Assembly: GCA_037833965.1 (NCBI GenBank)
Contig: AP031355.1
Span: 28,793,501 to 28,857,500 of the forward strand
Reading direction: 5' to 3'
Source: Marchantia polymorpha subsp. ruderalis
Taxonomy: Eukaryota; Streptophyta; Marchantiopsida; Marchantiales; Marchantiaceae
DNA length: 64,000 nucleotides
Under the pieces are notes generated by a model that saw nothing but the letters and a program-made list of their open reading frames with translations, searched no databases and was not told the origin of the DNA. Shown one piece after another: positions 2,347-23,992 of this stretch (the first letter of the stretch is position 1; each line of letters starts with the position of its first letter). Position numbers and translations under genes: made by a program.

Positions 2347-5076
2347 ATGACCTTCGACCGGGCGGCGGAGAACGTCCCATTCTTGAATTCGCGATTCCAA
2401 TCTCTTGTGCGCGCTGCGCGCATCCATCTGCTGGCTGCTAAACATTCTCGACGTCGTCGCACAGGAGATTTCTTGTTGATTGAGGGAGAAGTGAATGTGC
2501 GTGATTTGGAATTGAGGGCGATTAGAGTTTGCCGAGAGAGAAAGAAGCTCGGGCGGTGCGGGAGTAGAATGAGCGGGCGAGCGAACCCCAGGAACGCAAT
2601 GTCGAGACCGAGCAGATTGCGGATGGTGCCACTTTGCCTACCACAGAACGGGCTGCGCGCTTTCGAGGAGCGCTTAATAGCAAGAAAGCTCGATTTCTTG
2701 CTATGGGGATGGAACTACATCTGTGCGAATATGGTGCGCGAGTGGCTAGAGCCACAGGGACCACCCTCGCGCGGATTGCGTCCGCATGTTGATCGGTGGA
2801 CAGTCCAAGATTGGGCGCAGGCGTTGGGAAGATGTGCTGGCATGCCAGGACATCTCCTTTTCGACAGTGAGAGCATCAAGGTGACCAAGCAGGAAGAGGC
2901 ACAATTTGTGGAGCTGTTCAAGACCGGGAGGTCTACCAAGAATGGGTAAAGGACCCGTGATTACAAGGATCGATTTCGCCGGACTTTGTCCGCGGCGCTG
3001 ATGCAATTACTGCAGCCGCACCGCGCCTGCTACATCACATTATGGCAGGTCTCTTTTGTGGAGTGCGTCATCGAGGGAACTCCAATTCACTGGGCGAGCA
3101 TCCTGCACAGGGTGATGCGACAGCACGCGTTTGAGGAGAAGGGGGGAACTCTAAACCATCTTTCTCCTTTCCTCATCAATTTTTATCGACAGCGGAATTG
3201 TTTGACAGCGGCGGAGCTTGAACATTTTCCGCCATTGTCCATCGACCATCCCGGGAAGTATGTGCGGGAGAATGAGGTCGACACTGATGCAGAGGAGTCA
3301 CCGACTTCTACCCCATCAAGGCGGAGGGACGAAGGGAGACACACTCCTGCAGCACGAGTGCCGCGGAAGCGGCGATGGAGGGAAGAGTCTGAAGAGGAGC
3401 AGCATCAAGAACCCTCTGCTCCCATTCGACCGCGGCCGCTGTGCGAGTCATACAGCCGGCCGAAGCAGAAGGCACGCAGACTGGTGTTACCAGCCGACAG
3501 TGCGGACACGGCGACGATTGCGACGGAGAAAGGAAGTGCGTCGCCAGAGAAGCATGAGGAAGCGCGGACGACCGCAGGAGCAACGGGCCACGCTGCAACC
3601 TCGACGGGAGAGAGGCCGCCTACGGGCCAAGGGCCTCCGGAGTTACCACGTGCGATGCGGACAGATGTTCCGTTTGCGCACAGACGAGCCTCCGCGGACG
3701 GACGAGCCTCCGCGGACAGGCGATCACAAGTGGACGTGGATCTACGCTTACGCGTGGGAAGGAGCAGTCCGCCTGTGCACAGGCGCTCACCTGTGCACAG
3801 GTCGCCTGTGCACAGGTCGCCTGTGCACAGGACACCTCCACACGTGCCGCCTGTGCACAGGCAAGAATCACCCCCGTTCCAACGTAGGAAGGGGAAGGAG
3901 CCGGCGGAAGAACCGCCTACGAGACACCGGCCCTCGGGGCCAGACCCTCCGGCGCACCACGCACCGCAATTTGCGCCTTCGGCGCCAGGGCCTTCGAGCC
4001 GAGGAGATACGAGCAGCGAGGCTGCAGCCGTGCCTTCGCAGGCAGCACACGTCGATGACGTGCAGCCCCACTCGGGGCAGTCGCCGACGCAATCAATGGC
4101 GACTGAAATTCTCCACTCGGATGATGACGACGGAGGCTCCACGGAAGAAATGTCAGGAGCAGAAGACACCGAGGAGGAGGAGGAGGAAATTGTTGGAGCG
4201 CCGGCGGCGGCGCTCTCTGAGCAGGTGATTCCGTTGCTGAGGTACTTGGATCGCAAGGTCGATAAATACGCCGACCCACTCCAGCCGGGATCTTACATCG
4301 AGTTAGTGCGCAGGCGGACTCGCACTAAAGTCCACACCAGCAAGCTGTTAGCTAGAGTGGACCAGGAGTTGAGGGAATTGAAGGAGAAGCATGCATGCTT
4401 GTGGGGTCAGTATAAACTTAATCAGAAATTCTACAAGCACTCCGAGAAGATGAAGGATGAGAAACTGGACGAGCTCACCAAGGAGCAGGTGAAGGTCAAG
4501 GAAGCACTCATTTCTGAGCAGGCCCAGAATCGGATTTTGTCAGAGGAGCTCGTGCGACAGACGCGGTTGTTGGAACAATGTCAGCTCGCACGGCAGGCGG
4601 ATGAAGAGTTAATCCGCAGGTTACAGTCAGAGTGTGGCGAATTGAGAGCGCAACGTGCTGAGGCAGAATCGCAATTAGTGATAATTGAAGAGGATCGCAG
4701 GAAGGAGGCGGATCGCACGAAGGTGGAGACGGCGAGGCGTGTCGCCCACTGTCTCAAGGGCTACGCCCACTGGGAAGTGAAGGCGCAGGAGAAACTCACA
4801 CTGCGTGAGTTTGAATTGCGCGCAGCCGGGTTGTTGTCAGGCGACAGTAGGAGTCGGCGGAAGGTAGCAAAGAAGCTCGATGCCTTTCTGTCGAAGGCAC
4901 AGGATACCATGTCTGCCCTCGAAGTGGAGGTGTCCGCGGCGTTGCAGCGTTTGGGACTGCGCAGTCGAGCGGAAGATTGGCAGGGTAGGGAGTTAGTGCG
5001 CGGCAGTCGGCCGCGCAGGAGACGTAGTACAGGATCCGCGGAGTGTAGTGTAGCGTGGTTCCGTGCAGGCGTGTAG
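2347..5076 (+). pseudogene. LTR-embedded ORF: coiled-coil protein of family A, one in-frame stop
   Basis: From the ATG at 2347 the frame runs to the TAG at 5074 and is broken only by TAA at 2947-2949. Two other copies (23993-24600 and 25899-26338, minus) align across the first half, and the 23993-24600 copy has a sense codon (Phe) at the stop. Restored length is about 909 codons. The N-terminal 320 residues look globular (a WGWN segment, DWAQ-LGRC, then an HLSPFLINFY segment). A Pro/Arg/Ser-rich linker follows, including PVHR repeats encoded by the CCTGTGCACAGG palindromes, then an acidic stretch (EEEEEE). The last 280 residues are a long coiled coil ending in a basic tail (RPRRRR). Layout and the TLNHLSPFLINFY-like segment recall plant 'putative transposon protein' domains, but I cannot assign a function. 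On genomic RNA it would lie downstream of pol, in the U3 of the 3' LTR. Confidence 0.75.
3772..3861. repeat. Five palindromes CCTGTGCACAGG inside the coding region
   Basis: Perfect copies lie at 3772, 3790, 3805, 3820 and 3850 (12 bases each). In frame they encode repeats of Pro-Val-His-Arg. Spacing of 15 bases between three of them keeps the frame. Confidence 0.85.
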
Positions 5077-6081: not shown

Positions 6082-9000
6082 AGAACTCCTCTCTGAACAC
6101 CTAGGAAGGTCTTCTCAGGATTCAGAGCTAGCTGCATTCTTCTACATCTAATGAGAGCTTCTCTAACACACTGCAGATGCTCACTAGCACTTGACTGAGT
6201 GCTAAAATCGTCCACAAAAACTGTCATAGACTTGTATAACAGATCCGTGAAAATATACATCACCAACCTTTGGAATGTGGCTGGTGCATTGCACAATCCG
6301 AAAGGCATGACAACCCATACAAAAGTTCCCCACGGAGTTGTGAAGGCTGTCTTATGAACATCCTGCACAGCTATGGAAATCTGATTGTAGCCAGCATATC
6401 CATCCATGAACGTGTACCTCGCATGACCTCCAACTTCCTCCAAAAGCAGCGTGATAAAAGGTAAAGGAAAGTGATCCTTCTGAGTACAGGCATTCAGCTT
6501 CCTATAATCCACACACACTCTAAGTTTCCCGTTCTTCTTCTTGACCAAAACCATAGGAGAAACCCAATCCGTGATCTCTACAGGCTTAATGAATCCAGCT
6601 TTGAGTAATCTCTCCAATTCTGCTCGAACTAACAACTGTAACTATGGGTTCATCCTTCTCTCCTTTTGTCTAATAGGCTTAGCTCTAGGGACCAGCAAAA
6701 TCCGATGCTCCACCATTTCACGAGGCACTCCCTTCAACTCATCATACGACCAAGCAAAGGTATCACTGATTTCGTCCACCAACTCACCGTACTTTCGTAT
6801 CTCATCCTCTCCTAGCTTAGAACCCATCTTCATTTGCTTCAGCTCTCCTCCTCTGATGGACACCTCCACGTATTTCTAGTCTTCCTCCGCCACATGAGTT
6901 TGTTCCTCTGAGCTGCGATACCAATCTGGAGGGACCTGAGGATAGTCCTTGACGTCTTGGCCCACTAATATTCCGGTTGATGTAGTCTTGAAATGCAAGG
7001 GTTCCTCCAACTTCGCAGGTTGAACAGTATTCTCCTCCTCTTGAGTTTCACCAACCTGCACCAACCCCACCTCAGTAACATCCAACTCGTCCAACCATGG
7101 AGTGAGACCTCCATGTATCCACTCTTCCTCCATAAGAACCTCACATGGTTCTAGCAACTGATATTCTTCTCTTTGTGAACTGATCACCTCCTTCTTGGAA
7201 ATTTCGTGATGAGAAATCATCATGGCGTCACAACCTGTATCAGGATAATCTCTCAACCACTGAGCAAACTCTCCATCATCGCTTCTGCTGTAAAAACTAG
7301 GACCTAAGCTACCTGACCCTACATCTAATCTATTTTTTCTGCCATTCGACTGAACCACTCCCACTAAAGTGTCTTCACCCTCAGCCTCGTTATTCTCTTC
7401 TTTCTTCCCTGACGATAACTCAGGATCCTCTCTCACCCTTCCACCTAAGGACCCTATTGACACCTTGACTCTATTATCTAGAGGACCATATGTGATTGAT
7501 GGCTTCAGTCCTCCCCAATCCACAATGGCATTAGCCATTCTCAACCAAGGTCTGCCCAATAGAATAGGGAAAGTGTCCCTATTCGAATGCATCTTAATCA
7601 CATGAAATGTGACAATGTACTCCTCACCACCAGTGGACAACCGGCAATCTTTAATCATCCCCACTTGTACAGCCGAAGTCTGATTGGCCATATTGATAAT
7701 GAAAGGTGAGGGGCCTGTCAGATTCTAACCTAACCTTCTCATGGTGTGTTCAGGTAGGATGTTCAAACCACTACCCCCATCAACTAATACATTGGGAATC
7801 ACCTTGTCTACCACTACCACCTCTATCTCCACAGGTTTGACATCTTGACTTCCTTTTTGCAATTGAACTCTAGCAGCGACTCGAGTCTTCGTCTTTCCAC
7901 TCCTTCTATGCACTGGTATGCCCTCCTTCAAAGTCTTACGAGCAATGGGAGATATTTCCAGCAGCTGCCCGAAAGTAATGTCTGCCTTCAGCGAACTCAG
8001 ATCTGACCACAAATTGTACTTCTTCGACTCTCTCCTTTTCTAACATCTCATGTCCTCCCACTCTTTCATGGGAATCCCCGGTCCTTCCCACTCTCTTGGT
8101 TCATTGCTTTCTGAATCTTGCGTGACAGGTGGCACTTCAGCATCATGCAGAACCTCATCTCTATTCTCCTCTGCCCTTGTAATCCTCCTTGCTCTCCTCG
8201 CCACTCTCTCAAGATCAGAGAGATGAGGAGGCTCCTCTGATGAAGTCTCCCCTTGCTCATCCTCATTTTTCTCAGTCTGCATCTTGCGATGCATAGCTCT
8301 GGTGGTGACAGTAAGGGCCGGAGCTTCATGCATAATCCCATCATCCAAATTTTTCAACTTATAACTAATCAGGTTAGCATGTGGAGGCCACTGATTCTGC
8401 CCTTGTTCGACTATTCCCTTACCAAGATCAGAACTACCACGCTGGACATCTCCATCATCGCCATTTGCAAATCTAGCATCTTGAGAGTCTGAAGAACATG
8501 GATCTGCAAATGAAACCTGTTTTCTGCTGTCACTACGAGGTTCATCTCGTGGTTCATTCTGGATAGGAATATATCTGTTCACTGTCTGCAGTCCAACAGG
8601 TGGATTGAATGTCTGGTTGCTGTTTTCATGATCATAATACAAGTTAGGGGGTCTAAGATTGTCAGAATGCTCATTCTGTGGTCTTGCACCTCTCATATTT
8701 TCTCTCGCCTGGTGAGGACTAACAGCGGGCTGAGGCATCCTAATAACTTTGTCTGGCTGCCGACATTGGTCAGAAGGATGACTACCTCCACAGTTACTAC
8801 ACCCATTAACCCCAACTTCAGACCAACACTGACCTGGATAGTGCCACCTACCACAAAAAGCATGCAATTCTTTTCTCTCCCCATTTTGACCAACCTAACC
8901 CCTAGGAGGCCCTCTGTACCCGCCTTGACCTTGGTAATTTGGTCCTTGGCCCCTTTTATGTTGCACAGGTGGGCCACCGTTCATTCTATTCTCACGGTTC

Positions 9001-10540: not shown

Positions 10541-10744
10541 AGGTTGCAAGATACTCAGCTTTCCGCCTACCCACAGGCGAAGAAAGTTTTGTCCTATGCG
10601 CGGACGAAGGAAGTTCGCCTGCGCACAGGCGAAATAGGGTTTCGACCTAGGCGCGAAGTTCGCCTACGCACAGGCGTTCGCCTGTGCACAGGCGCTTCGG
10701 CGTCGGCGGGAAATCCGCCTTCGGCCCTAGAAATGCGCCTTCGG

Positions 10745-10748
10745 GGTT
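10745..10748. other. Candidate 4-bp target duplication GGTT (left)
   Basis: GGTT directly precedes TGTCATG at 10749 and GGTT follows ACGACA at 22277-22280. Both outer ends are TG...CA, so 10749-22276 behaves as one insertion. Gypsy elements usually give 4-6 bp, so this fits but is short. Confidence 0.5.
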
Positions 10749-11041
10749 TGTCATGTAGTTACGAGTCGGCTCACGAAGTTCAGACACTTACTATATTTAG
10801 CCGTAAAGTTAGGGTTCCGGTCACGAGGGGTATACAGTCGGGGACGGCTCGAAGAACGTCAGTTCTTTGAGTCGAGCCTGGAAGCGTTGGGAGCGTAGAG
10901 TGACTTTCCCCTTTGCGTCGACCTGGATTCTCCGAGTGTGGAGTGGGTTGGGCTTGACTCATGTTTGTGACGGTGACGGTTTGTTGCCAGTAGGGTAATT
11001 GACCGACGGGAATTCCAGTGGGGAATCTCCTGTCTATTTCA
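10749..11041 (+). repeat. Left 293-base terminal repeat of family B
   Basis: TGTCATGTAG...TCTATTTCA, matching 21866-22158 at 290 of 293 positions. It is followed by ctcgaagaac, which is not an obvious primer-binding site. It may be a complete LTR or the 3' part of a longer one (see 21748-21863). Confidence 0.85.
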
Positions 11042-13329
11042 CTCGAAGAACTCTCGACGTTTTTGTGTGTAACCGTTTTACGTTCCGTTCTGCCTCTTTG
11101 TGTTTTCGTCGGGTGTTTCTCTCTTTTGTGGTTTGTTTATACCTTTGGGCAATTTCTGTATTTGAAAGTCTGAGGAAATCAAGGTTTTAAATCGAGAAAT
11201 CTGTGCAGAAAGATTCTCAGATTTGATGTTCGGAAGTAGGGATTTTGAAGATTGCGTCGGAGTCTGAAAACTGAAGTTTCGGGATAGCATTCAGTTTTCG
11301 TTCGTGTGGCGTCGAAGGACAGTTGAAGATTATCGAACTACAGTTTGAGTGAGCATTAAGAGCCGGACAACGGATTGGAATTGAAAGAACGGGACGACGA
11401 TTTCTCTCGGTGCTGATCGCTGTGCGGTTTTTGTGACTCCTCGGTGTCTTCCTTGAGAAGGGAAGGCCGTGAAGTCGCGCAGAATTTGACTTGCTGAAGA
11501 AAACAGATTTCGAATCTTACATCGAATGTTGCCGCGCACCCGGACGTCGCTCGCGTACAGCACGAGGGAGAGGGAGGAGGTCGAGGCTGCGTGCCCGGCT
11601 CATCCTGAGAAACAGACGCCGCTTGTGGCCGCAGCAATTCTGGGGTATCTTGTCTTGTACTTCTCTTCTCGGTGAATGGCGGTTTCTATAATTATGTAAA
11701 AAGCTAGAATCGTCGATTTCCGTCCTATTTGCTTCTGGAGAGAAAGGATCAATTTTTTGGAGTAAAATTTCTTTCTACACCTTCAGTGTTCTTTCTGTCA
11801 TAACCTGTTGAACACTCGGTCTTGAAATTTGACCATGTGCTCACTTTGAGGCAAGGTCCAATTTGGATGTGAGATTCGAAGGTTCTGATTGGCCAGAGCT
11901 GTAGAAATCACTTATCCTTTCGGTAGTGACTTGAGTGCTATGAAACACTCTATCTGAGCATTCAACAGTAGTAGACATATGGGATCGAGAAACAGTCCGA
12001 TGGACTTCATCTTCAATTGCCTACTAGTCACACTCAAGCAATTGGCATCTCTCCTCGAGGCCAGTCCTGGTAAAGTCACGTGGTCGGAGTTCAAGAAGAC
12101 GAGCGTGCGTGGAAAGCAAAGATTCAAGAACTAAGATTGCGACTGGAGATAGAGAGATTTCGGCCAGCGATTGTGAAGAATAGGAATGCTTTTAGAGCAC
12201 ACGAGACTGTGATATATAGAAATATGGTCAGTGGATTTTGAGCGGCTAGCTGCACGGGAAATTTGTGCACGCAGCGACTCCCGTGGCCTTCATAAATCAT
12301 CTCGACGCGGTAGCAGGCCCTGATTTGGTAGAGAGTTGCCACAGCAAATCGTTAGCAATCGAAGAAATTTCAAGTGCTGATTTGCGTGCAGAAAACTCGG
12401 AGATAACCCGCGCGAGTGAGTTAGTGTTCCTCCCCCCTCCGAGTGGCAGTGCTTGAGCGGCCGAGCCAGCCCCGAACGGCAGGGCAGGAAAGGTAGGGCC
12501 CGAGCGCAGTCCGGATGCTGAGTGGCAAGGGCAGGGCGGCTGTAATCTCTCCCCCACTCGCTTGCTCGTTGCAGTTGGATCGAGGGCATGTACAGCTAAA
12601 GTTGGGGTGCAGCGGAGGTGGTAGTCGGCCAAGCGGACCAATCGCGGTAAGCAAGAAAATGGTGGTGGGAGGAGAACCACGTAAGGAGGGCTAACCGTGA
12701 CAGAGTGTAACCACGTTTAACAAGGTGAACTGCAGTTGGTTAGGTCAAAACGTGCAGATCAACTGTAGTCAGCATGGATTCATTTGAAGTCAAGAGCGAA
12801 AAGAACACAAGGCTCTCCACGATCGAGAATAGGGAGTGTGGCACTTGAGGCAGAAAGCAAGCGGAAGGAAGTAAGTTTGTCAGTTAGAAGGTCGACTGCA
12901 ACGGAGCACTGCCCCGAGGAGGAGTGGCTGCAGACCCTTTCCCTCCCGACCTTACTTGGCGTTTACAGCTCGGGTGTAAGAGCTGTGGTGTTTGGGATGA
13001 GCCCTGAGAAGGAGGGGAGACTCTTAGTACAGAATACCTCAGTTAAGTTAAGTACAGTTACCTCTTTAAGTTTTATCATATTAGATTTTCAGAGGTAGCT
13101 TACAGCAGGCATTTTTCTGGGTTTTTTGAATTCTAGTCAACAAGGAGTTAGTGAGGTTTTGAATTCAGTAGTTGAAGAGAATTTGTTCATAAACAGATTT
13201 ATAAAACTATTAAAACTATCTAGTGGTTTTATAGTTGAGTTGGTGTCTAGTTTCCATTTAGTGGTCTAGTTTACAGATATCCTATGAACGATCCTTGTAC
13301 ATAGTGGAGTTTTGACTTGTGAAGGGAAA

Positions 13330-13689
13330 ATGCTGCTTGGAGGAAAGGTAGACGACAGTGATATACAAGAAATCCAGACAGTGGAGGTCGTCAGCACCGA
13401 AGAACGTGATCAGGAGCAGGAGGTGACAGTGAAGCCTCAAGTAGAAGAGAATCTGGTAAACCCTGTTGTGGTAGACGAAAAAGATTCCGGGTTAGATTGG
13501 GACGAGGCACTAGCCGTGGAAAAACTTCTAGAGGAATCCGGCCTAGAGTACAGGGTATCTGAGGATGAGTTACTAGACCTTCCGCAGGATATTGCTGACC
13601 ATTTGAGAGATGTTCAGTATGTTCAAGACTGTCTTTCAGAAGAAATTCTTGTACTAGAGAAATTTCTTGATAGTCTCCCAAAGGATTGA
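13330..13689 (+). CDS. Small acidic ORF in the family B leader
   Basis: ATG at 13330, 119 codons, TGA stop. The product is very acidic (VDDSD, DEKDSGLDWDEA, EEILVLEKFLDSLPKD) with Leu-rich amphipathic stretches in the second half that could form helices. No family is recognised. About 190 bases downstream lies a run of 22 A, and AT-rich TATATATA precedes it, so the segment could be a captured cDNA or a genuine accessory gene of the element. Length and composition make chance unlikely but do not exclude it. Confidence 0.45.
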   Translation: MLLGGKVDDSDIQEIQTVEVVSTEERDQEQEVTVKPQVEENLVNPVVVDEKDSGLDWDEALAVEKLLEESGLEYRVSEDELLDLPQDIADHLRDVQYVQDCLSEEILVLEKFLDSLPKD

Positions 13690-13875
13690 TAGCAAATACT
13701 TGTAGCGTTTAGATAGGAGTTCCTGAAGGGATCGGGAGTTTGCACCCGGTTTCACTACCTGTGACGTGATGTTTTGAAAGCATTGTAAATATATATATGA
13801 CGTAGTCAATATATTGAGCTTTCAGTGTGTAGTGTGTTTGTTGAGGGGCAGTGTGATCCCTGTGTGAAGGAGAAG

Positions 13876-13897
13876 AAAAAAAAAAAAAAAAAAAAAA
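13876..13897 (+). repeat. A22 homopolymer
   Basis: Uninterrupted run of 22 adenines, 186 bases after the acidic ORF stop. It could be a fossil poly(A) tail or a slippage-prone simple repeat. Confidence 0.9.
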
Positions 13898-14577
13898 GAA
13901 AAGTTTTCAAACAATTTTTGTTTGCAATTTGGTGGAAGAGGGCATCATAGTCACTGGAGGCCCACGAAAATGGAGGGCGATGGAGATCGAATCGGGATCG
14001 CGAAGCGATGCGATGTCACGTGTGTGTTGTCTTGTTTTGTGCTGTGTTTCCTTTAGATTGGAGAGTCGTTGCTAGCTGGTTGCTTGTGTTTGGATCCTCT
14101 CCAGTCTTGCTTCCTGATGCGCGCCCGTGTAGGGGTGACGCTGATTTCCGGAGTAGTTTTACTCCTGTGTGCTGGCGATAGGGGGCTGGACTTGATCACC
14201 GGCCGGCCTATCTATGTTTCTCTCACGGTGAGACTGGAGTGATGACCAGTAGACCGTGAGAGTCTTCTTGCTGTGATGACAGGTTAGGTTGCCCATACCC
14301 CTTAGCTAGTAGGGCTAGAGTAACTTAGTGCGGCACGACGTCAGGGGCGGATTGGGTTATTGGGTGGAGATCTGGCAGTGGTGCCAGTTGAGGTCTCGTC
14401 ATCACGGAGCAGTCTAGTGGTCCTGTTGAGGACCGCGGGGGATTTACGCGGAGTGGGTTGAGGTATCGGCTACCTTCACCTATTTTGCCAGTTGTTGCGG
14501 AGCAGGACCAGAGTGTTGCAGACAGAGAGTCTTTGTTGGTGATATCGTCTAGTGTCCCCACCCCATTGATTTGGGAC

Positions 14578-17500
14578 ATGGACGGGATGTACGGGGCCGC
14601 GAAGGGCCCTCGACGTTATTCTGGTGCAGTGGGCACCATCGAGCTTGATGATTTTATTCAGGAGTTCGACACGTGGTGTGATATGCAGTTTCTGCGTAAC
14701 CCCACGTTGTTTACACCCTTCTTTGCATGGAAGGGATTATTCCAGCATTTGGAGGGGCCTCCCATGGACGATTATCATGAGTTTGGGAGAGAGTATGCTG
14801 TAGAGATTGATGCATGGAGACGGCATTGGTCTCCGAACTACTCATCCATTACCCAGGGTGGTGTGGGTACCAGTGGAGCTGCGAGTATCGGCATCAGTGG
14901 AGGTGCGAGTAGTAGCATCAGCGAGGGTACCAGTGGAGCAGTTGGCGCAACTGGTACTAGTACCAGCAGCGGTACTGTTAGCATTGCCGGTGGCAGCACG
15001 AGGCGAGATGCTGGTGGCGTACCTTCGTTTAGCCCCATTCCTGAGTTCTTCCAGAGATTGAGGAAGAATTATCAAGGGGTGAAAACGGAGAAGTTGAGGA
15101 GCCTCCAGGAGTTTGAGCGGAAGACTGGTGAGAGTCTTCGTGAGGCATACACTCGTATGCGACGGCTCATCTCAGTTACTCACGGTGTGACTGAGGCACA
15201 GGCTGTCCAGTACTGGTATCGGATTCTTGACAGAGAGTTGCGGAGGAGAGTGCGTGATGCTACTCTCATGAGCGACTCATCACCCACATTAGCCCATGTG
15301 TTTGCTCTTTCTGAGAAGATTGAGCTTAACATGGTGGAGGAGAGGGTGGTGACGTCTACATTTGCGAGGGACACGACCACTACCTCGCGTATCCCACATT
15401 GCCCAGCACAGTCTCGCCCCAGTGGGAGTCGTGGAGGTCATACACGACATCCTTCAGGTCACAGAGAGCCTAGTGCGCGGCCACCACTGCCTTCATTTTC
15501 GGGTCAGCCACAGGGACCGTCATGTTGGACATGCGGAGGTAGCCATATGAGGAAGGATTGTCCCCAGGAGCGAGAGGGACAAACTCCACAGGCTAGGCCA
15601 CAGCCAGCACAGGTGACCTGTGATCATTGTCATCGACCGGGTCACCCTCGAGAGCGTTGCTTTGACCTTCATCCTGAGTTGAGATCTGGAGGTAGAGGTC
15701 GTGGAGGTGATGCTCCGCGAGGCCGAGGTGGTAGAGGTGGTAGAGGTATCGGGGCCATTGAGCGTACCGCAGCGAGTGCTACTTCTGCCACAGAGAGCGC
15801 TATGGCTGCTCGGATTGAGCAGTTGGAGCAGAGGCTTGCTGCTATGGCCGGTCTTGGGGCGAGCACTTCCACATCTTACGAGGGAGAGGATTTCTCCTAT
15901 TTGGCCAGTGCAGCACAGGTTGAGGCATCAGTTGCAGTGACTAGAGGTGGTGCTCGCACTTCAGAGCCACGTGGTGCGACTGTGGAGTTGGACCCTCAGA
16001 GGGGTGAGGGTGGACGTCAGTCTAGACTTCCCCAGTCTTTTTTGTTGTCAGAGGTGGGTAGCAGTTCATCTATGAGACCTGCACCGCCTACTGACACTAG
16101 AGTGAGAACTGAGGTTCTTACATCATCTGTTCTGGGCGCAGACTTGCCATCTAGTGCAGTGATGCGGATGGCCACTTCAGTCTTGCGATCTCCATTGTTC
16201 TCAGCCACGGAGTTGATAGACTCTGGTATTGATTTGGCTCGAGTATTTCGGGTAGCAGCCACGTCGTGTGAGCGTGGGAGAGTCGCTGCTACTAGTGCCG
16301 AGATAAGTGAGGATACAGTTGAGGACCCATCCTCAACGTCTACATTGTTCGAGGAGACGCCTTGGCAGGCCGCAGCGGCGAGGATGGAGTCCTTACCAGC
16401 TCGCCCAGCCATTGATCGCGAGAGTATTGTCCCTGGTGTATGTATGGTGGACAATCGAAGTGGTCTATTTCGGTTAGTGAGTTCTACTGGACAGGTGTAT
16501 GTCCCAGCCAGAGTTTTGTTGGATTCTGGTGCACAGCCCTTGATGTTGGGCAAGGCTGCATGCATTAGTTTGGGCATTCGGAGGTCCGAGTTGGAACCTT
16601 GCCCATTCCAGATCCAGACATCCCTTGGTGGTGCCAGCAATAGGTCTTACTTTATGACCAGGGAGAGCATAGCGGTGCAGTTGAGGCATGATCACCCTCA
16701 TGATAGCTCGCAGTTTGGAGTTCGTGCTGTGGTTACATCAGCAGAGTCATATGATGTGCTTGTTGGTGGAGTGGTGTTATACCCGATGGGCTTCCGGATG
16801 GACTATTGGACGGAGACTGCCGCATATCGTCCTGGTTGGCAGTCCGGAGATGGACGTTTGAGCGAGCTGCCAGTGAGATTTATTTCTCGGGATCGACCTC
16901 TTGGATCTTCGTCAGCGGTCTTGGCATCTGTAGCAGGTTTTAGCAGAGTGCTTACCTGGCCCGGTGAGTTGTTGGCGGGGAACATGTCTGCCGACGATAC
17001 CTCACTCTACGAGGATGTGGAGGAGGTTGTGAGTTTCACAGCGGCGGTGACTTCACCCTTAGATGTTCCACCGTGGAGTTCGTGCCAGGCACTACAGTTG
17101 GAAGCTGATAGGTTGGTAAAAAAGGCTTGGAGTGAAGCCTCGTTACCAGCAGAGCCAGAGAGGGCTTCAGATGATCGGCTAGTTAGTGGTTCTAGAGCAT
17201 TGTCTCCATTGGTTACTACACCTATTGCATGGGAGTATTCCTCAGAGGGCGTTTGTTTGCTGGATCTTTTTGGTGGAATCAGCACAGGTTTGGCTGCAGT
17301 GTTGCAGTCAGGTATTCTCGTACGGAGATACTTATATGTGGAGAAGGACGAGACTGCACGTCGAGTCTCTTCACGACATGTTGCACAGTTGATGCGGCGT
17401 TTTCCTTTGTTGTTGCCGCGATCAGCTGTCCGAGGATTCCAGAAGGCGTTGCCTTCAGACATTTCGTTGCTGGGGGCGCAAGACCTTGACCGCGTTGGCC

Positions 17501-18447
17501 ATATTGATATGGTGATTGCGGGCTGGCCATGTCAGGGACACACACGCGCTGGACATGGGACAGGGTTGCATGATCCCAGATCTCGGATGTTTTGGGAGAT
17601 GATGCGAGTGTTACGTCATCTCCAAGTGCAGCAGACACGTTCTCCAGCATACATTCTGGAGAACGTACCATTGTTGGGTGACACTCGGGCCCAGTTGATG
17701 GCGAGTGTCCATCAAGTCCGAGCATGGATTGGATCAGCAGTACTGTTGGATGCTGCGAGGGTTGGATCACGGGCGCATCGTGCACGTTTGTGGTGGACCA
17801 ACCTTTTGCCACGTGAGATATTGCGTCATGCTTATGATTCGGTGAAGCGTGATACTAAACTCACCGTTGACAGTATCTTGGATGTTTCCCGGCACTCTCA
17901 AGTAGTGAGAGTTGCTGACAGGTCACCTATGGCGTTGGTGAACCGCGTAGGTCAGCCTCGGATGGCTTTACCTACATTTGTCAGTTATCCGGCATCACAC
18001 GCGTATCGTGATGGGGGACCTGGACTACTATGGGACAGTACCCTACATCAGTTGGTGGAGCCCAACGCTGATGAGAGAGAGCGTGCGATGGGGTTTCTTA
18101 CTGGTGTGACCGCGGCTTCTTCAGTTTCAGAGGCGTCGCGTCGTCAGGTTTTGGGTCAGGCTATGGACCTGAACTGCTTGACGTGGATTGTGAGCTTGGG
18201 TTTGGCCGAGCAACGCCGTTTGCGCGCAGATTTGGTGGTTGTAACACCACTTATTAGCTCATTGCCTACCGGGACGGTAGTAGCAATGGCTGGGGGCGAC
18301 AGGCGAGATATTTGTCATCCTTGGAGTTTATGGGACGTGACGAAAGGACTTGCCAGAGTTGCAGCCCATGCAGTTGGAGAGGATTCTCACGTGGAGGTGG
18401 CTACGAAGAAGGGTACGGAGAACCCTTCTTTGCAGTGTGTAGCGTAG
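14578..18447 (+). CDS. Gag-protease-C5 cytosine DNA methyltransferase polyprotein
   Basis: The first ATG of the frame is at 14578 (the frame is open from 14392), giving 1289 residues. Gag region: residues 1-300, with a Gly/Ser/Thr-rich insert. Two zinc knuckles follow, CWTCGGSHMRKDC (316) and CDHCHRPGHPRERC (348), then an RGG-rich basic patch. The protease active site is LLDSGAQ (Asp 649). From about 890 comes a DNA methyltransferase: motif I DLFGGISTG (896), motif IV GWPCQG with catalytic Cys 985, motif VI ENVP (1028), motif VIII RAHRARLWWTN (1065-1075), and a C-terminal EREPAMGF-like block (here ERERAMGF) with RQVLGQAMDLNCLTWIV. Motif order is the standard one, not the permuted DRM order; RARLWW and the final block look DNMT3-like. 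All core catalytic residues are present, so the enzyme may be active. Likely role: methylate CG or other sites on element or host DNA. Confidence 0.95.
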   Translation: MDGMYGAAKGPRRYSGAVGTIELDDFIQEFDTWCDMQFLRNPTLFTPFFAWKGLFQHLEGPPMDDYHEFGREYAVEIDAWRRHWSPNYSSITQGGVGTSGAASIGISGGASSSISEGTSGAVGATGTSTSSGTVSIAGGSTRRDAGGVPSFSPIPEFFQRLRKNYQGVKTEKLRSLQEFERKTGESLREAYTRMRRLISVTHGVTEAQAVQYWYRILDRELRRRVRDATLMSDSSPTLAHVFALSEKIELNMVEERVVTSTFARDTTTTSRIPHCPAQSRPSGSRGGHTRHPSGHREPSARPPLPSFSGQPQGPSCWTCGGSHMRKDCPQEREGQTPQARPQPAQVTCDHCHRPGHPRERCFDLHPELRSGGRGRGGDAPRGRGGRGGRGIGAIERTAASATSATESAMAARIEQLEQRLAAMAGLGASTSTSYEGEDFSYLASAAQVEASVAVTRGGARTSEPRGATVELDPQRGEGGRQSRLPQSFLLSEVGSSSSMRPAPPTDTRVRTEVLTSSVLGADLPSSAVMRMATSVLRSPLFSATELIDSGIDLARVFRVAATSCERGRVAATSAEISEDTVEDPSSTSTLFEETPWQAAAARMESLPARPAIDRESIVPGVCMVDNRSGLFRLVSSTGQVYVPARVLLDSGAQPLMLGKAACISLGIRRSELEPCPFQIQTSLGGASNRSYFMTRESIAVQLRHDHPHDSSQFGVRAVVTSAESYDVLVGGVVLYPMGFRMDYWTETAAYRPGWQSGDGRLSELPVRFISRDRPLGSSSAVLASVAGFSRVLTWPGELLAGNMSADDTSLYEDVEEVVSFTAAVTSPLDVPPWSSCQALQLEADRLVKKAWSEASLPAEPERASDDRLVSGSRALSPLVTTPIAWEYSSEGVCLLDLFGGISTGLAAVLQSGILVRRYLYVEKDETARRVSSRHVAQLMRRFPLLLPRSAVRGFQKALPSDISLLGAQDLDRVGHIDMVIAGWPCQGHTRAGHGTGLHDPRSRMFWEMMRVLRHLQVQQTRSPAYILENVPLLGDTRAQLMASVHQVRAWIGSAVLLDAARVGSRAHRARLWWTNLLPREILRHAYDSVKRDTKLTVDSILDVSRHSQVVRVADRSPMALVNRVGQPRMALPTFVSYPASHAYRDGGPGLLWDSTLHQLVEPNADERERAMGFLTGVTAASSVSEASRRQVLGQAMDLNCLTWIVSLGLAEQRRLRADLVVVTPLISSLPTGTVVAMAGGDRRDICHPWSLWDVTKGLARVAAHAVGEDSHVEVATKKGTENPSLQCVA

Positions 18448-18453
18448 CAACCA
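18445..18453 (+). promoter_or_regulatory. Leaky stop context UAG CAA CCA
   Basis: The methyltransferase frame ends TAG and is followed by CAA CCA, which fits the UAG-CAR-YYA rule for tobamovirus-type readthrough. The downstream RT is in the same frame with no other stop until 19081. This would give a Gag-Pro-methyltransferase product and a minor fusion with RT-integrase. Confidence 0.65.
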
Positions 18454-21400
18454 TTGACAGTGTCGCCTCCCTCTAGTGTGCCTATGGAGGAGGAGTGGGA
18501 GCCATTGATTGGTTCCCAGATCACAGGAGGAGAGAGGCGACGATTGACACAATTCCTACGAGACTATAGGAGTTGTTTTGCTTTCAGTATGAAGGAGTTG
18601 GGTGCGTTGATTGGACCCGGTATACGGATAGAATTGGCTAGTGATACGCCAATCTTCCGTCGTCCTTATCGATACAGTGAGATGGAGAGAGATTTGATTC
18701 GGAGTAGGACGTTGGACCTACTGGAGGCTGGACTAGTGGAGTTATCGCATGGTGAGTATGCGTCAGCCACTGTCATGCCGGTGAAGAAGGATGTACATGG
18801 CAACTACACGGATAGGCGCATGTGTGGAGACTACCGTCCTATCAATCGGCAGACGAAGTCCGATAAGTATGCCATGCCTACACCTGAGGAGATCTTCGAT
18901 GTGGTGGGACATGCGAGGATTTTTAGTACTTTGGATCTTCGGGCAGGATACCATCAGTTGCCAATTCGGGAGGAGGACAAAACCAAGACAGCGTTTTGGG
19001 GCGTCAACTCCCACGGCAAGGATTGTTTGTATCAGTGGCGATTCTTACCCTTTGGGTTGAAGAATGCACCTGCCGAGTTTTAGAGGGTTATGGACAGAAT
19101 CCTGGCGGGGCTGGATTTTGTCAGATGTTACATTGATGATATCTTGGTGTTTAGTGACACTGTGGAGCAACACCAAATACACTTGCAGATTGTGTTTGAG
19201 CGATTGAGGGCTCATGGTTTGAGGTTACATCCTGGGAAGTGTAAGTTCTTCCAGGAGAAGGTTGAGTACTTGGGTCATGTGATATACCCATGTGGTTTAG
19301 GAGTTCAACAAGCAAAGGTGGAGGCTATTGCACGCATCCCTCGTCCCACGGATGTGAGTAGAGTTCGTGCATTTATGGGTTTAGCGAACTACTATCGGAG
19401 GTATGTGAAGGGGTTCAGTGCTATAGCCAAGCCTTTGAACCAGTTGCTGAAGTCAGATCAGGAGTGGCAATGGGGAGATGAGCAGGAGAGAGCTTTTGTT
19501 GAGCTCAAGGCCAGGTTGGTGGCCGCTCCCATCTTGAGGAGACCTATCAGAGGTCGTCCATACCAATTGCACACTGATTGGAGTATGTTGGGACTTGGAG
19601 CGGTGTTGACGCAGCGTGATGATGAGGGCAAGGAGTTTGTGGTTGCGTACGCTAGTCGTTCGAACAATGCAGCGGAGTCGCGGTATAGTTCGTACGAGGG
19701 AGAGTGCTTGGCAGCGGTGTGGGCTGTGGCGCACTTCAGGTGTTACTTGTTTGGTACGCAGTTCACCCTTGTTACTGATCATCAACCGCTCAAGTGGTTG
19801 ATGGAGTCCGACAAGCTTACAGGGAAGCTTGCACGGTGGGCTCTCATCTTACAGGAGTACGACTTTCAGGTGGTGCATAGACCTGGAGTTGCGAACCTAG
19901 ATGCCGATGGTTTGAGTCGAAACCCATGCACTAGCCAGGAGGATGACACTGGAGCTAGATGGCATGGTGAGGTTGACGAGGAGATGGTGCCTGGTTGGCA
20001 TGCATCTGCCTTCATGTGTTGGTTACGTGGGAACTCCAGCAGAGAGGATCGTCTGACATCTTACTCTAGTCAGAGAGTAGATGGTCGATCTCCAGATCCT
20101 GAGGTTGAGGATGGTGGTGTGGATCAGCGTGATGTACACGATGATGCATTGGTGTTGGAGTTCCTACGGACCAGCATGGTGCCAGGCACAGTGGGTGCCA
20201 AGGAGCGAGATCGTGTTCTCCAACGGGCCAAGAGGTACCGATTGAAGGGATCACATGTTCTCCGAGTATGGGAGGACGGTAGGGTACGAGTAGTACCACA
20301 TCCAGCCCAGAGAGCACGCATTGTGAGGCATGCTCATGAGGAGTTGGGACATTTTGGAGTGAAGCGTACCTACAGCTTACTCCTTGGTCAGTATTGGTGG
20401 CGTGGTATGCATACTCAGGTACAGCAGTTGGTATCACGTTGCATGGTTTGTGATCGAGTGAGGGCATCATTCAATGCCCCGACACCAGTGTTACATCCAT
20501 TACCCATCATGGGGTTGGGTTACCGTTGGAGTTTGGACTTTGCTGGACCACTACCTTTGACTGTACGACATCATCGGTATGTGTTGGTGATGGTGGAGCA
20601 TTTCTCCAAGTGGATTGAGTTGGTGGCATTACCTGACAAGGCAAGTGAGGGAGTAGCGTATGCTTTTCTTGACAGAGTGCTTAGTCACTATGGTGCACCA
20701 GCTGAGGTGTTGACCGATCAGGGAACGGAGTTTCAGGGTGAGTTTCAGGTCTTGTGCGACAAGGCACTGATTGATCATCGGACCACGTCGCGAGATCATC
20801 CAGAGGCGGATGGTTTAGCTGAACGTGTTGTACAGACGGTGAAGAGGGCGTTGCGCAAGTATGGCCTGCACAAAGGTCATCTTGGGGACTGGGATATCCA
20901 GTTACCGTGGTTGGCCATGGGATATCGGTTCAGTCGGCAGGCATCCTTGGCTTCCTTCTCACCATATTTTCTATTGTACGGCCGAGATCCAGACTTGCCA
21001 ACATCGATTCGTCGTGAGTCTAGCGAGGTGGTGAACCTTGATGACCCGAATATGTGGGTGAGAGTATGTTCTCAACGTGCAGAGCTCTTTCGAAGAGTTA
21101 TGCCTGCAGCGTTTGAGAATCTTGCGATTGCTCAACATAGAGATACGTTGCGGTATGCAACCATTCGGGGAGGAGGTTATCGACCATCAATTCGTAGATT
21201 CCATGTGGGAGACTACGTCTATCTACAGCAGACTGCACCGACGACATTGGATGTGACGGCGGGACGCACCATCTTGCGGGTGCGGGAGGTGTTACCTTCT
21301 GGAGTTCTCCTGTTGGAGGGTCGTGACGGCGTTGTTTGGAAGGATCATGTGCGCAATTGTGCGCCATGCCACCTCCCAAACGTAGATGGCACTATGGACC

Positions 21401-21576
21401 CAAGCTTAGCGATAGTACGTGCTAGCTTGAGGTGCATGCTGTGTGGGTCGGTTGGTCAGGCGGCCCGTATGTTGGTGTGTGATAGGTGCTCTAGGGGATG
21501 GCACATGTCGTGCCTAACTCCGCCTATCGTTGTTATTCCGGCTGGACGATGGGTTTGTCCTCGATGTACTTCATAG
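18448..21576 (+). CDS. RT-RNase H-integrase-PHD finger (one internal TAG)
   Basis: Same frame as the methyltransferase and reached by readthrough of 18445; the first internal ATG is at 18484. Reverse transcriptase: LLEAGLVELSHGEYASATVMPVKK-type fingers, MCGDYRPINR, LPFGLKNAPAEF, and catalytic YIDD at 19129. RNase H: LHTDWSMLGLGAVLTQ through TDHQPLKWL. Integrase: HHCC zinc domain (20320-20460), then Asp 20536 (LDFAGP), Asp 20716 (TDQGTEF) and Glu 20821 (GLAERV), spaced exactly DD35E. From 21433 a PHD finger: CMLC, CDRC, GWHMSC and WVCPRC give C4HC3. A TAG at 19081 interrupts the conserved PAEF(Q)R motif, where family members have Gln, so it is a CAG-to-TAG change that would silence this copy unless also suppressed. 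Confidence 0.93.
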
Positions 21577-21733
21577 GGGTAGATGACTTGATCTTCACAT
21601 GTTATGAATTGCAGATAGGCGACTAACGATGGGGCGACATAGCACCCGGCCTACTGGTTCGCGCACCCACGAAGGTGTATAGCATGTAGTTGTAGATGGG
21701 GCTACCTGGGAGTCAGAGGGACCTGACCGCCAG
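21577..21733 (+). other. Non-coding 3' segment of family B
   Basis: Short stretch between the pol stop and the purine tract with no ORF of note. Confidence 0.6.
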
Positions 21734-21747
21734 CTAGGGGGGCGAGT
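21734..21747 (+). other. Polypurine tract of family B
   Basis: AGGGGGGCGAG inside ctaggggggcgagt sits directly before TGTGACATTTG at 21748. This argues that the 3' LTR begins at 21748, not at 21866. Confidence 0.55.
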
Positions 21748-21863
21748 TGTGACATTTGAGTGTGTACTCTCTCGCGCCTTATATGTGTGCATGTGTGTGC
21801 GTATGTGTATGTGAGTAGCATGTCAGCGATGTAGAGTGTATGGCGATATGTATTCGCACGACA
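21748..21863 (+). repeat. 116-base repeat X, first copy
   Basis: TGTGACATTTGAG...CGCACGACA, identical in all 116 bases to 22161-22276. It abuts the polypurine tract on its left and is joined through GC to the 293-base repeat on its right, so X plus the 293-base repeat could be one 411-base LTR. Confidence 0.85.
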
Positions 21864-21865
21864 GC

Positions 21866-22158
21866 TGTCATGTAGTTACGAGTCGGCTCACGAAGTTCAG
21901 ACACTTACTATATTTAGCCGTAAAGTTAGGGTTCCGGTCACGAGGGGTATACAGTCGGGGACGGCTCGAAGAACGTCAGTTCTTCGAGTCGAGCCTGGAA
22001 GCGTTGGGAGCGTAGAGTGACTTTCCCCTTTGCGTCGACCTGGATTCTCCGAGTGTGGAGTGGGTTGGGCTTGACTCATGTTTGTGACGGTGACGGTTTG
22101 TTGCCAATAGGGTAATTGACCGACGGGAATTCCAATGGGGAATCTCCTGTCTATTTCA
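21866..22158 (+). repeat. Right 293-base terminal repeat of family B
   Basis: Differs from 10749-11041 at three sites (one T/C, two G/A). It is followed by GT and then the second 116-base repeat. Confidence 0.88.
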
Positions 22159-22160
22159 GT

Positions 22161-22276
22161 TGTGACATTTGAGTGTGTACTCTCTCGCGCCTTATATGTG
22201 TGCATGTGTGTGCGTATGTGTATGTGAGTAGCATGTCAGCGATGTAGAGTGTATGGCGATATGTATTCGCACGACA
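22161..22276 (+). repeat. 116-base repeat X, second copy
   Basis: Identical to 21748-21863 and ends at ACGACA, immediately before the right-hand GGTT. It forms the outer right end of the insertion. Confidence 0.85.
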
Positions 22277-23992
22277 GGTTGGAACTTGTACGGACGCGGA
22301 CCGACGCGGACGCCTGTGGATAGGCGGCCTGTGCACAAGTGGACGGCCTGTGGATAGGCGGCCTGCGGGTAGGACGCGGACGCCTGCGGATAGGCAAACG
22401 CCTTCGGCGGAAGAGTAAAACCGTCATAACTTTCTCAATTCTTAACGGTTTGACTTACTTAGGGTCTTGTTGAAAGAGCTCGCGACGCTTGTTCTAACGA
22501 GACCAAGAACTCTTGGAACGGATAAGGCGTCACTGAGTTATGAGCGTCGAAAGCGGCTGTCATGGTTAGGAGAGAGGCCTTCGGCGTTAACATATAGAGG
22601 AGCCTTCGGCGTTAACAGTTAGAGGGGCCTTCGGCCCATGGCGGCCTGCGAGTAGGCGGCTTGCGTGTACGACGCGTGGGACCCACAGTCCTCGGATTTT
22701 GGAGAGGGAATTTTGGCCTAGGTTCAGAGATCTTGCGGGGCCCATATCTTTGCGATGGACGGTCGGATGGATCTGAAATTTTGTGGGGCCGTTGATCTCG
22801 GCCGGCCACGCATGCCTGCAAATTTTCAGCCTCAGATCTTGGATGGGAAGGCGCTGGCGGCTCTGTACAATAGGCTTAGGATTCAGGTTTAGGATTAGGG
22901 TTAGGTTTAGCTTGTAAGTTAGAGGGGAAGGCAGCCGCCGACTCCTCAGGTGTAGTATCTGTTGCGGCTCGCACCATGGCATTGCAGTGTAGTGTTAGTT
23001 AGAGCTTAGAAGGTATAAAGTAGTTCAAGGCGTCTTGCCTTGTGTTCTTTCCCAAATTCAGAAGTACAGATCAGGAACTCATCTTCTCTGCGTGTTTGTG
23101 TCCTTAAGTTCTGTCACCACGCAAGAGAAGTTACAACTTGGCGTTCCGCATTTTGTAGCTGAAGGTCTTCGGCCGAATGTTCAGAGCTAGTACATTGGTT
23201 AGAGACTTGAGTAGTTCGGATCTACACCTGCGGGTGACTGCCGATGCTCAGAGCCAGTGACTAGTTAGATACTTGAATAGTTTCGCCCCTACACCTTCGA
23301 GTGTTTGGTCCTGATTGTACTCCTTCGGGATTTTTCCCCTGAATGCCAAAGTGAAGTTTTGTTACTTCGTGTAAGCCTTGGTTGTAAATTCAGGTTACGC
23401 TGCAGCAGGTGCCTTGAGGGTAGCCCCTGTAGTATTTCTGGGAATGACAAGTGCCTGAGAATTCAAACTCTTCAATAGACTGTTGTTGTGTTACTGGAAT
23501 GTTTCTCCGTGAGTCCTTCAGTGCGGACCTATGTTCTCTGCGCGTTTTGTGAGTTGAGAGTGTTGTTCACCGCGTATGAGTGACTTCGATCCGAAGTAGG
23601 CAGTCCAACCCGGGTTTCCTACGCTAGCAGCAAGCTAGTGGAAGTGTTGTAAAAGCCGGAGTTGGAAGTCACTACCCGCAGCTTCTCTAAGTGTACTCTT
23701 GAGAGACCTTCCCCCTGAAATCTTGAGTAGAGGTCCTAACGGGTCTCTGGGTTGTGTTTCTGTAGTTTCAGGTGTGTGTGTGTGTGTGTGTGTGTTACGT
23801 TGCACTGTGCGACCTCCGAGTGCGCTCCGAGTGGACACTTGCAGTATTTCTGGGAGTGACAGTCGCCTGAGAATTCAAACTCCTCAATAGTCTGTTAAAC
23901 GTGACACTTTGTACCCTGTGTGTTCCTCTGTCCCTGTGGGTTCGACCTTTCTACCACTATATTGCAGTTTTAGCCTTTAGTGGGTTATTACA
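22277..23992 (+). repeat. Family A LTR without ORF, right half
   Basis: Continuation of the LTR broken at 10748. It holds one 122-base module (22424-22544) and a TATA box at about 23016. From 22985 it is nearly identical to 5082-6081, ending GGGTTATTACA at 23992. The region that holds the ORF in 1103-6081 is absent: without the inserted element this LTR is 2546 bases. Confidence 0.8.
22424..22544. repeat. 122-base LTR module, copy 3
   Basis: Begins GTCATAACTTTCTCAATTCT and ends CACTGAGTTATGAG, like the units at 10138 and 10419. Confidence 0.65.

What the first reader, a model, noticed from the sequence alone, without database searches (positions are those of the whole stretch)
14578..21576. 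A plant Ty3/gypsy retrotransposon that carries its own C5 DNA methyltransferase
Seen: in one frame, gag zinc knuckles, a DSGA protease, then methyltransferase motifs DLFGG, PCQG, ENVP, RARLWW and the C-terminal block, then RT-RH-IN. Known: methyltransferases captured by retrotransposons have been reported in dinoflagellates and charophyte algae. Inference: a land-plant element has kept or gained one, with intact catalytic Cys 985, so it may methylate its own cDNA or host loci. This could protect cDNA, steer integration or rewrite host silencing.
Basis: partly seen in the sequence, partly recalled or inferred. Interest (0 to 1): 0.95.

Follow-up and report, generated by a model that had tools for sequence, protein, structure and literature searches.

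The report
Liverwort jumping gene carrying DNA methyltransferase
A mobile element in what appears to be a liverwort genome carries a DNMT3-type DNA-methylating enzyme fused to its coat protein; relatives in mosses, other liverworts and green algae suggest an old partnership between a genomic parasite and the kind of enzyme that normally silences such parasites.

Summary
The window holds an 11.5-kb Ty3-like retroelement (10749-22276) with a DNMT3-type C5 methyltransferase (MT) between protease and reverse transcriptase. The frame has two UAG stops. The first (18445) lies in the tobamovirus-type readthrough context (UAG CAA CCA), recurs as UAG CAA UCA in a relative 49% identical in the MT, and puts the MT in a Gag-protease-MT protein with Pol probably made by readthrough. 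The second (19081) breaks this copy's RT. Pol ends in a PHD finger. Repeats run A-genes-B-A-B, as published for KnitGypsy-Dnmt3 of Klebsormidium.

It is a family, not a chance insertion: named relatives come from Marchantia, Calypogeia, Riccia and Sphagnum. A sister group, including green algae, has the MT between RNase H and integrase. MT and Pol trees give the same deep split; the catalytic Cys is kept in 232 of 236 domains covering it; the MT model fits DNMT3A/B best. Gypsy elements with DNMT3 were published for a charophyte in 2018, so the kind is known; bryophyte and chlorophyte members, Gag-side placement and readthrough did not turn up in my literature searches. Enzyme activity, cDNA methylation and the integration route are inference.

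The parts
10745..10748 (.). left copy of putative 4-bp target-site duplication GGTT
10749..11041 (+). repeat A1, element start TGTC
   Evidence: 293 nt, 99% identical to A2; 3 differences, all transitions
11042..14391 (+). leader of 3.35 kb without ORF of 150 aa or more; no TGG primer-binding site next to the end of A1
14392..18447 (+). ORF1: Gag - protease - DNMT3-type MT, ends at UAG 18445-18447 (first ATG used by relatives 14578)
   Evidence: relatives P0001 and others begin at the same Met
15523..15660 (+). two CCHC zinc knuckles of Gag
16513..16536 (+). aspartic protease active site (LLDSGAQ)
17248..18222 (+). C5-cytosine methyltransferase domain, DNMT3 type; catalytic Cys codon 17530-17532
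18445..18453 (+). UAG CAA CCA, readthrough motif UAG CAR YYA
   Evidence: same motif in L017 at 3489-3497; motif definition PMC3542737
18448..21576 (+). Pol frame: RT, RNase H, integrase, PHD; continues in the frame of ORF1
19081..19083 (+). second in-frame UAG, inside RT: lesion of this copy (relatives P0006 and L017 read on here)
19555..19860 (+). RNase H
   Evidence: PF17917, residues 156-257 of ORF 19090
20302..20802 (+). integrase: H2C2 zinc domain and rve core
21433..21567 (+). PHD finger at the C-terminus of Pol
21736..21742 (+). putative polypurine tract AGGGGGG directly upstream of B1
   Evidence: matching tract in L017
21745..21864 (+). repeat B1
   Evidence: 120 nt, 100% identical to B2
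21857..21870 (+). B1-A2 joint CACGACAGCTGTCA; its two halves are the two outer ends of the element
   Evidence: identical 14-mer at L017 7048-7061
21866..22158 (+). repeat A2
22158..22276 (+). repeat B2, element end GACA; A2-B2 joint reads CA-GT-TG
22277..22280 (.). right copy of putative target-site duplication GGTT

Best explanation
This is a copy of an old green-lineage family of Ty3-like retroelements that make a DNMT3-type methyltransferase as part of the Gag-protease-MT polyprotein. Most ribosomes stop at UAG 18445; a minority read through to make Gag-protease-MT-Pol, so the MT is made at coat-protein level, not at Pol level, and is packaged in the particle where the cDNA is made. I think it most likely that it methylates the element's own new DNA (CG first, by analogy with DNMT3), so that the DNA enters the nucleus already marked, while the PHD finger on integrase helps choose or read chromatin at the target. 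Shown: element, domains, stop context and its conservation, DNMT3-type fold prediction, conservation of catalytic residues, matching MT and Pol trees, split repeats. Inferred: readthrough itself, packaging, methylation of cDNA, role of PHD, integration of a form whose ends lie at the B-A joint.
Against: No enzyme, readthrough or packaging test was possible. KnitGypsy-Dnmt3 MT gave no methylation in yeast, which its authors call inconclusive (PMC5890265). In the window-L017 comparison the MT (pN/pS 0.51) is less constrained than RT-RH (0.27) or integrase (0.26), close to PHD (0.51) and below Gag (0.63). Type II MTs often have EC in place of PC at the catalytic motif (98 E against 133 P of 236), so not all members need share the activity. 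CpG depletion of the element is slight (0.79 against 0.87 and 0.94 in flanks; MT itself 0.90) and does not show self-methylation. Readthrough motif seen in DNA of only two elements. Some integrase stretches in the Pol trees were over-long because split hits were merged.
Confidence: 0.5

Rival explanations
1. The MT is passive or degenerate cargo, picked up once and copied along with the element.
For: Many Marchantia copies are broken (this copy has a stop in RT; P0003 has Ser at the catalytic position, P0001 has His in motif VIII). The MT is less constrained than RT or integrase.
Against: Catalytic residues are kept in nearly all covering relatives, synonymous sites are saturated while half the residues are kept, and the MT is present on both sides of the bryophyte-chlorophyte split of the family.
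Confidence: 0.08
2. Related DNMT3s were captured several times independently (bryophyte type, chlorophyte type, Klebsormidium), as de Mendoza and colleagues concluded for dinoflagellates against Klebsormidium.
For: The MT sits at two different places, before RT and between RNase H and integrase. No host DNMT3 and no Klebsormidium sequence could be put in the trees (not listed).
Against: The MT and Pol trees show the same deep split and correlated distances, expected if MT and Pol travelled together; the element MTs found each other before any recognised host DNMT3 in the listed hits.
Confidence: 0.3
3. The split A-genes-B-A-B ends are a one-off: a conventional LTR element (LTR = B plus A, TG at 21748 to CA at 22158, behind a polypurine tract) whose two-LTR circle was inserted at the middle of an LTR, or a local rearrangement.
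For: B1A2 looks like a canonical TG-CA LTR after a polypurine tract, and the A2-B2 joint CA-GT-TG looks like an end-to-end LTR joint. L017 assembles as a circle (127-nt end overlap), which a collapsed conventional LTR element would also give. Only one genomic copy could be read.
Against: The outer ends TGTC and GACA are exactly the two halves of the joint palindrome, are flanked by GGTT on both sides, the joint 14-mer is conserved in L017, and the same repeat order is published for KnitGypsy-Dnmt3 (PMC5890265, Fig. 4 legend). Caution: a second shared 14-mer at non-corresponding places (E 0.024) shows that one 14-mer alone is modest evidence.
Confidence: 0.35
4. The first UAG is a lesion like the second one, and the intact element makes one continuous Gag-MT-Pol protein.
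For: This copy does carry one certain lesion; a few Marchantia gene models run from MT into RT (P0006, P0012), though these are predicted models that may skip the stop.
Against: L017 has the same UAG CAR YYA at the same place in an otherwise open frame; several Marchantia and metagenome proteins end there.
Confidence: 0.05
5. The MT acts on RNA or on host DNA (for example to raise or spread host methylation) and not mainly on the element's own cDNA.
For: Zinc-knuckle Gag brings it close to RNA; DNMT2-like RNA activity exists in the wider family; PHD could steer it to chromatin.
Against: Fold and profile are DNMT3, with DNMT2 far lower (4.9e-22 against 4.5e-4); related retroelement DNMT3s (SymbioDIRS) methylated CG de novo in yeast DNA (PMC5890265).
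Confidence: 0.25

Closest known systems
KnitGypsy-Dnmt3 of Klebsormidium nitens (de Mendoza et al. 2018, PMC5890265)
   Same: Gypsy domain composition, DNMT3-type MT in the polyprotein, intronless copies, repeat order A-coding-B-A-B, proposed self-methylation of cDNA.
   Different: Reported in the Pol ORF; here the MT lies in the Gag-protease ORF before a readthrough-type stop. PHD finger and stop context are not mentioned in that paper's main text (PHD 0 occurrences). Sequence relationship not tested: no Klebsormidium protein was listed.
SymbioDIRS-Dnmt3 and SymbioLINE-Dnmt of Symbiodinium (same paper)
   Same: C5 methyltransferase inside a retrotransposon; DIRS ones share the split repeats and DNMT3 class.
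   Different: DIRS uses a tyrosine recombinase and LINE an endonuclease; here a DDE (rve) integrase.
DNMT3A/DNMT3B
   Same: Fold, motif order and catalytic residues of the MT domain.
   Different: About 22-24% identity; no ADD or PWWP found by Pfam in ORF1; PCQG in place of PCND (DNMT3A residues as aligned); a PHD finger is present but on Pol.
RT-RNase H-MT-integrase-PHD elements of Haematococcus, Chlamydomonas eustigma and unnamed metagenomes (type II here)
   Same: Homologous MT and Pol with PHD.
   Different: MT between RNase H and integrase; often EC in place of PC at the catalytic motif; 17 of 285 proteins examined carry a second, adenine-methylase-like domain after PHD, which the window and L017 lack.
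Tobamovirus replicase readthrough (UAG CAR YYA)
   Same: The nine-base stop context.
   Different: Used here, if at all, between Gag-protease-MT and Pol of a retroelement; only inferred.

Membership tests
Ty3/Gypsy retroelement (Metaviridae type) | Pol order RT - RNase H - integrase with rve core | tested here: met
Ty3/Gypsy retroelement (Metaviridae type) | Gag with CCHC knuckles and aspartic protease | tested here: met
   motifs; Pfam alone did not call the window's protease, it does in relative P0018
Ty3/Gypsy retroelement (Metaviridae type) | complete LTR at each end of the integrated copy | tested here: not met
   A at the left end, B-A-B at the right; so Ty3-like by Pol, not a canonical LTR element by its ends
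Ty3/Gypsy retroelement (Metaviridae type) | short target-site duplication of about 4-6 bp | tested here: inconclusive
   GGTT on both sides, one copy only
DIRS retroelement | split direct repeats A-genes-B-A-B | tested here: met
DIRS retroelement | tyrosine recombinase in place of DDE integrase | tested here: not met
   rve and H2C2 found, no tyrosine recombinase in the three ORFs scanned
DNMT3 family methyltransferase | canonical (unrearranged) C5 motif order I-IV-VI-VIII-IX-X with PC, ENV, RxR | tested here: met
DNMT3 family methyltransferase | closer to DNMT3 than to other C5 families | tested here: met
   no tree with host DNMT3s could be made
DNMT3 family methyltransferase | de novo CG methylation activity | not testable with these tools
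   needs purified protein or expression
KnitGypsy-Dnmt3 | MT within the Pol ORF | tested here: not met
   MT before the UAG at 18445 that separates it from Pol
KnitGypsy-Dnmt3 | sequence homology to the Klebsormidium copies | not tested
   no Klebsormidium sequence was obtained

The most novel reading that the evidence does not exclude
A single, very old partnership between a Ty3-like Pol and a DNMT3 enzyme runs through the green lineage from chlorophytes to bryophytes, predating land plants. In the bryophyte branch the enzyme moved to the Gag side of a UAG readthrough stop and is delivered at coat-protein dose, so the particle methylates its own cDNA; and a DDE integrase inserts a form with ends at the B-A joint (DIRS-like split repeats without a tyrosine recombinase), a replication route not described for LTR elements.
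Probability: 0.3. Interest if true: 0.85.

Novelty: new variant of a known kind. Interest (0 to 1): 0.62.

Why it matters
It puts methyltransferase-bearing retroelements into land plants, in a genus (Marchantia) with an established model species, where function can be tested directly. [quoted passage not shown] If the partnership is old and shared, the open question why a parasite should carry the enzyme that silences parasites becomes testable across the green lineage: by dose (Gag level), by substrate (cDNA, RNA or host DNA) and by the joint use of a chromatin-reading PHD finger.

Tried and rejected
Tried without result: the window's own genome was never searched, as the genome search gave no answer ten times (the same request repeated, as the tool advised), so copies elsewhere in the host genome, their ends and target duplications could not be read. 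Viral contigs with MT gave 16 loci with partial matches of 26-43% identity, not examined one by one and read as phage or bacterial methylases; with Pol gave none; with the joint 14-mer gave 60 stretches, about what chance gives in a collection of that size by my estimate. Genome contigs gave 5 loci: L017, used here, lies in a cyanobacterial MAG and is taken as eukaryotic contamination; the other 4 are Streptomyces partial matches. P0048, from a bacterial MAG by its name, is taken the same way. No tRNA genes in the window; no canonical primer-binding site found next to A1. Repeats or inverted repeats that would mark a nested insertion in the 3.35-kb leader: none found at the settings used.

Considered and rejected: a single chance insertion (many copies); a DIRS element (rve integrase); a lesion explanation for the first stop (L017); the Gypsy integrase at 7-1065 as a copy of the same family (30% identity). 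Literature searches. They did not show a paper on MT-bearing retroelements in bryophytes or chlorophytes; the library lacks most subscription journals and preprints. A 2025 paper (PMC12344493, passages only) speaks of DNMT3 within retrotransposons as previously reported in streptophytes; I did not read its tables and supplements, so it may hold such members. The fold list shows no DRM chain; that is not evidence of difference.
Full report
What is there. The + strand frame from 14392 to 21576 holds, in order, Gag with two CCHC knuckles, a DSGA protease, a C5 methyltransferase (MT), RT, RNase H, H2C2-rve integrase and a PHD finger. Two in-frame UAG stops interrupt the frame, at 18445-18447 and 19081-19083.

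Host. The first protein search gave 44 hits, all listed: 15 are named Marchantia polymorpha (10 MARPO locus names, 5 Mp_ names; 78-96% identity in the MT region) and one is Sphagnum fallax. The best, P0001, is 95-96% identical in the MT. The host is therefore probably a Marchantia; this is inference, as the host genome could not be searched.

Family. The second search (188 hits, 120 listed) names Calypogeia fissa (4), Sphagnum troendelagicum (2), M. polymorpha (4 more), M. paleacea (1) and Riccia sorocarpa (1). The third (123 hits, 120 listed) names Haematococcus lacustris (3), Chlamydomonas eustigma (5) and Cymbomonas tetramitiformis (2); one EukProt entry bears an identifier that I read, from memory, as Chromochloris zofingiensis. 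The rest are mostly unnamed metagenome proteins. No Klebsormidium protein and no recognised host DNMT3 is in the listed rows.

Two architectures. With profiles for MT, RT region and integrase, 285 sequences (281 proteins plus the two ORFs each of window and L017) fall into: MT only 188, RT-MT-IN 46, MT-IN 24, RT-MT 20, MT-RT-IN 3, MT-RT 2, RT-IN 2 (the last two are the Pol ORFs of window and L017). So the MT lies either upstream of RT (type I: window, L017, Marchantia models P0006, P0011, P0012, and P0040, P0044) or between RNase H and integrase (type II: chlorophytes and many metagenome elements).

Trees. For 35 elements, MT and Pol trees both separate {window, L017, Sphagnum P0032, P0040, P0044} from the 30 type II elements (FastTree local support 0.92 for MT and 0.998 for Pol). 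IQ-TREE gives 99 for the MT split (47 sequences; P0032 and P0040 left out as their MT is short, 14 added, of which P0063 and P0068 are short proteins whose MT position is unknown) and 100/99 for Pol (35 sequences). Patristic distances correlate at 0.835 over 30 of the 35 elements (P0032, P0040, P0202, P0227, P0228 dropped as incomplete), with 0 of 9999 permutations as high, the largest 0.47; permutation ignores relatedness, so this is not a strict probability. Some integrase stretches were too long because separate hits were merged. The trees have no host DNMT3, so one capture is favoured, not proven.

Selection. Window against L017: MT 48.5% identical, pN 0.37, pS 0.73, ratio 0.51; Gag 0.63, protease region 0.67, RT 0.27-0.32, integrase 0.26, PHD 0.51. 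Synonymous sites are saturated, so ratios are upper bounds of a kind, but the MT is clearly less constrained than RT and integrase.

Stop and readthrough. The first stop reads UAG CAA CCA. L017, a 9285-bp contig filed under a cyanobacterial MAG but carrying a related complete set of genes, has UAG CAA UCA at the same place, with Pol in the same frame. Both fit UAG CAR YYA, the tobamovirus readthrough context (definition seen in PMC3542737; 8 of 4096 hexamers fit CARYYA). Marchantia P0001, P0002, P0005 and metagenome P0010 end within a few residues of the same point, and others such as P0018 at a similar distance. The MT is thus a Gag-side domain. Relatives read on at the second stop, which lies inside RT, so this copy is probably not autonomous.

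Ends. Direct repeats: A at 10749-11041 and 21866-22158 (99%, 3 transitions in 293), B at 21745-21864 and 22158-22277 (100%). Order: A, genes, B, A, B. The outer ends are TGTC and GACA, flanked on both sides by GGTT; their junction occurs inside, as GACAGCTGTC at 21860-21869, once in the window, and the 14-mer CACGACAGCTGTCA is identical in L017 at 7048-7061, in both cases about 100-120 bases after a polypurine tract. Such a match by chance anywhere in the two regions is about 0.005; a second shared 14-mer at non-corresponding places has E 0.024. The 2018 paper describes the same repeat order for KnitGypsy-Dnmt3 (Fig. 4 legend). A different view is a normal LTR (B1A2, TG to CA) with the copy inserted from a two-LTR circle cut in mid-LTR; one copy cannot decide. 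L017 ends overlap by 127 bases; a circle can be real or an assembly product of a repeat family.

PHD finger. It resembles CHD4, KMT2D/KMT2C and DPF fingers. From memory, the residue before the last Zn-binding His region lacks the extra Trp of H3K4me3 readers, so an H3K4me0 reader is possible. This would echo DNMT3's ADD domain but on integrase.

Comparison and novelty. Read: PMC5890265 parts 1-4 of 7 and passages; passages of PMC6338049, PMC12344493, PMC6453930, PMC3441728, PMC3542737; other papers only as listings. The kind, Gypsy with DNMT3, is known. Marchantia, Sphagnum and chlorophytes have no occurrence in PMC5890265's main text. Bryophyte and chlorophyte members, the Gag-side MT, the readthrough context and the shared MT-Pol history did not appear in ten literature searches. 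Hence: new variant of a known kind.

Noticed in passing
P0033, P0036, P0194 and 14 other proteins: 17 of 285 proteins searched, type II as far as placed, carry after the PHD finger a second methyltransferase-like domain (DPWxGTG ... SPWF); the model (pLDDT 86.1) is nearest to N6-adenine DNA methylases by Foldseek (BpuSI, M.BseCI 1.2e-5, TM below 0.6). Such elements would carry both a C5 and an adenine-type methylase.
   Followed up: partly
type II MT domains: The Pro before the catalytic Cys is Glu (EC) in 98 of 236 covering domains, unusual for C5 methyltransferases as I recall.
   Followed up: no
window 13876-13897; L017 about 8152-8177: Run of 22 A in the leader some hundred bases upstream of gag, matched by a similar A run in L017.
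   Followed up: no
window 3770-3861, 10658-10699, 22312-22373: Short tandem palindromic units of the GCCTGTGCACAGGC kind near both ends of the element and elsewhere.
   Followed up: no
window 7-1065: Integrase end (H2C2, rve) of an unrelated Gypsy element, 30% identical to this one.
   Followed up: partly
window 38527-39387, minus strand: ORF with a weak class 3 lipase match (1e-5).
   Followed up: no
L017 (CADCWO010000201.1): A contig of a cyanobacterial MAG is a eukaryotic-type retroelement with overlapping ends: contamination, or a real extrachromosomal circle.
   Followed up: partly
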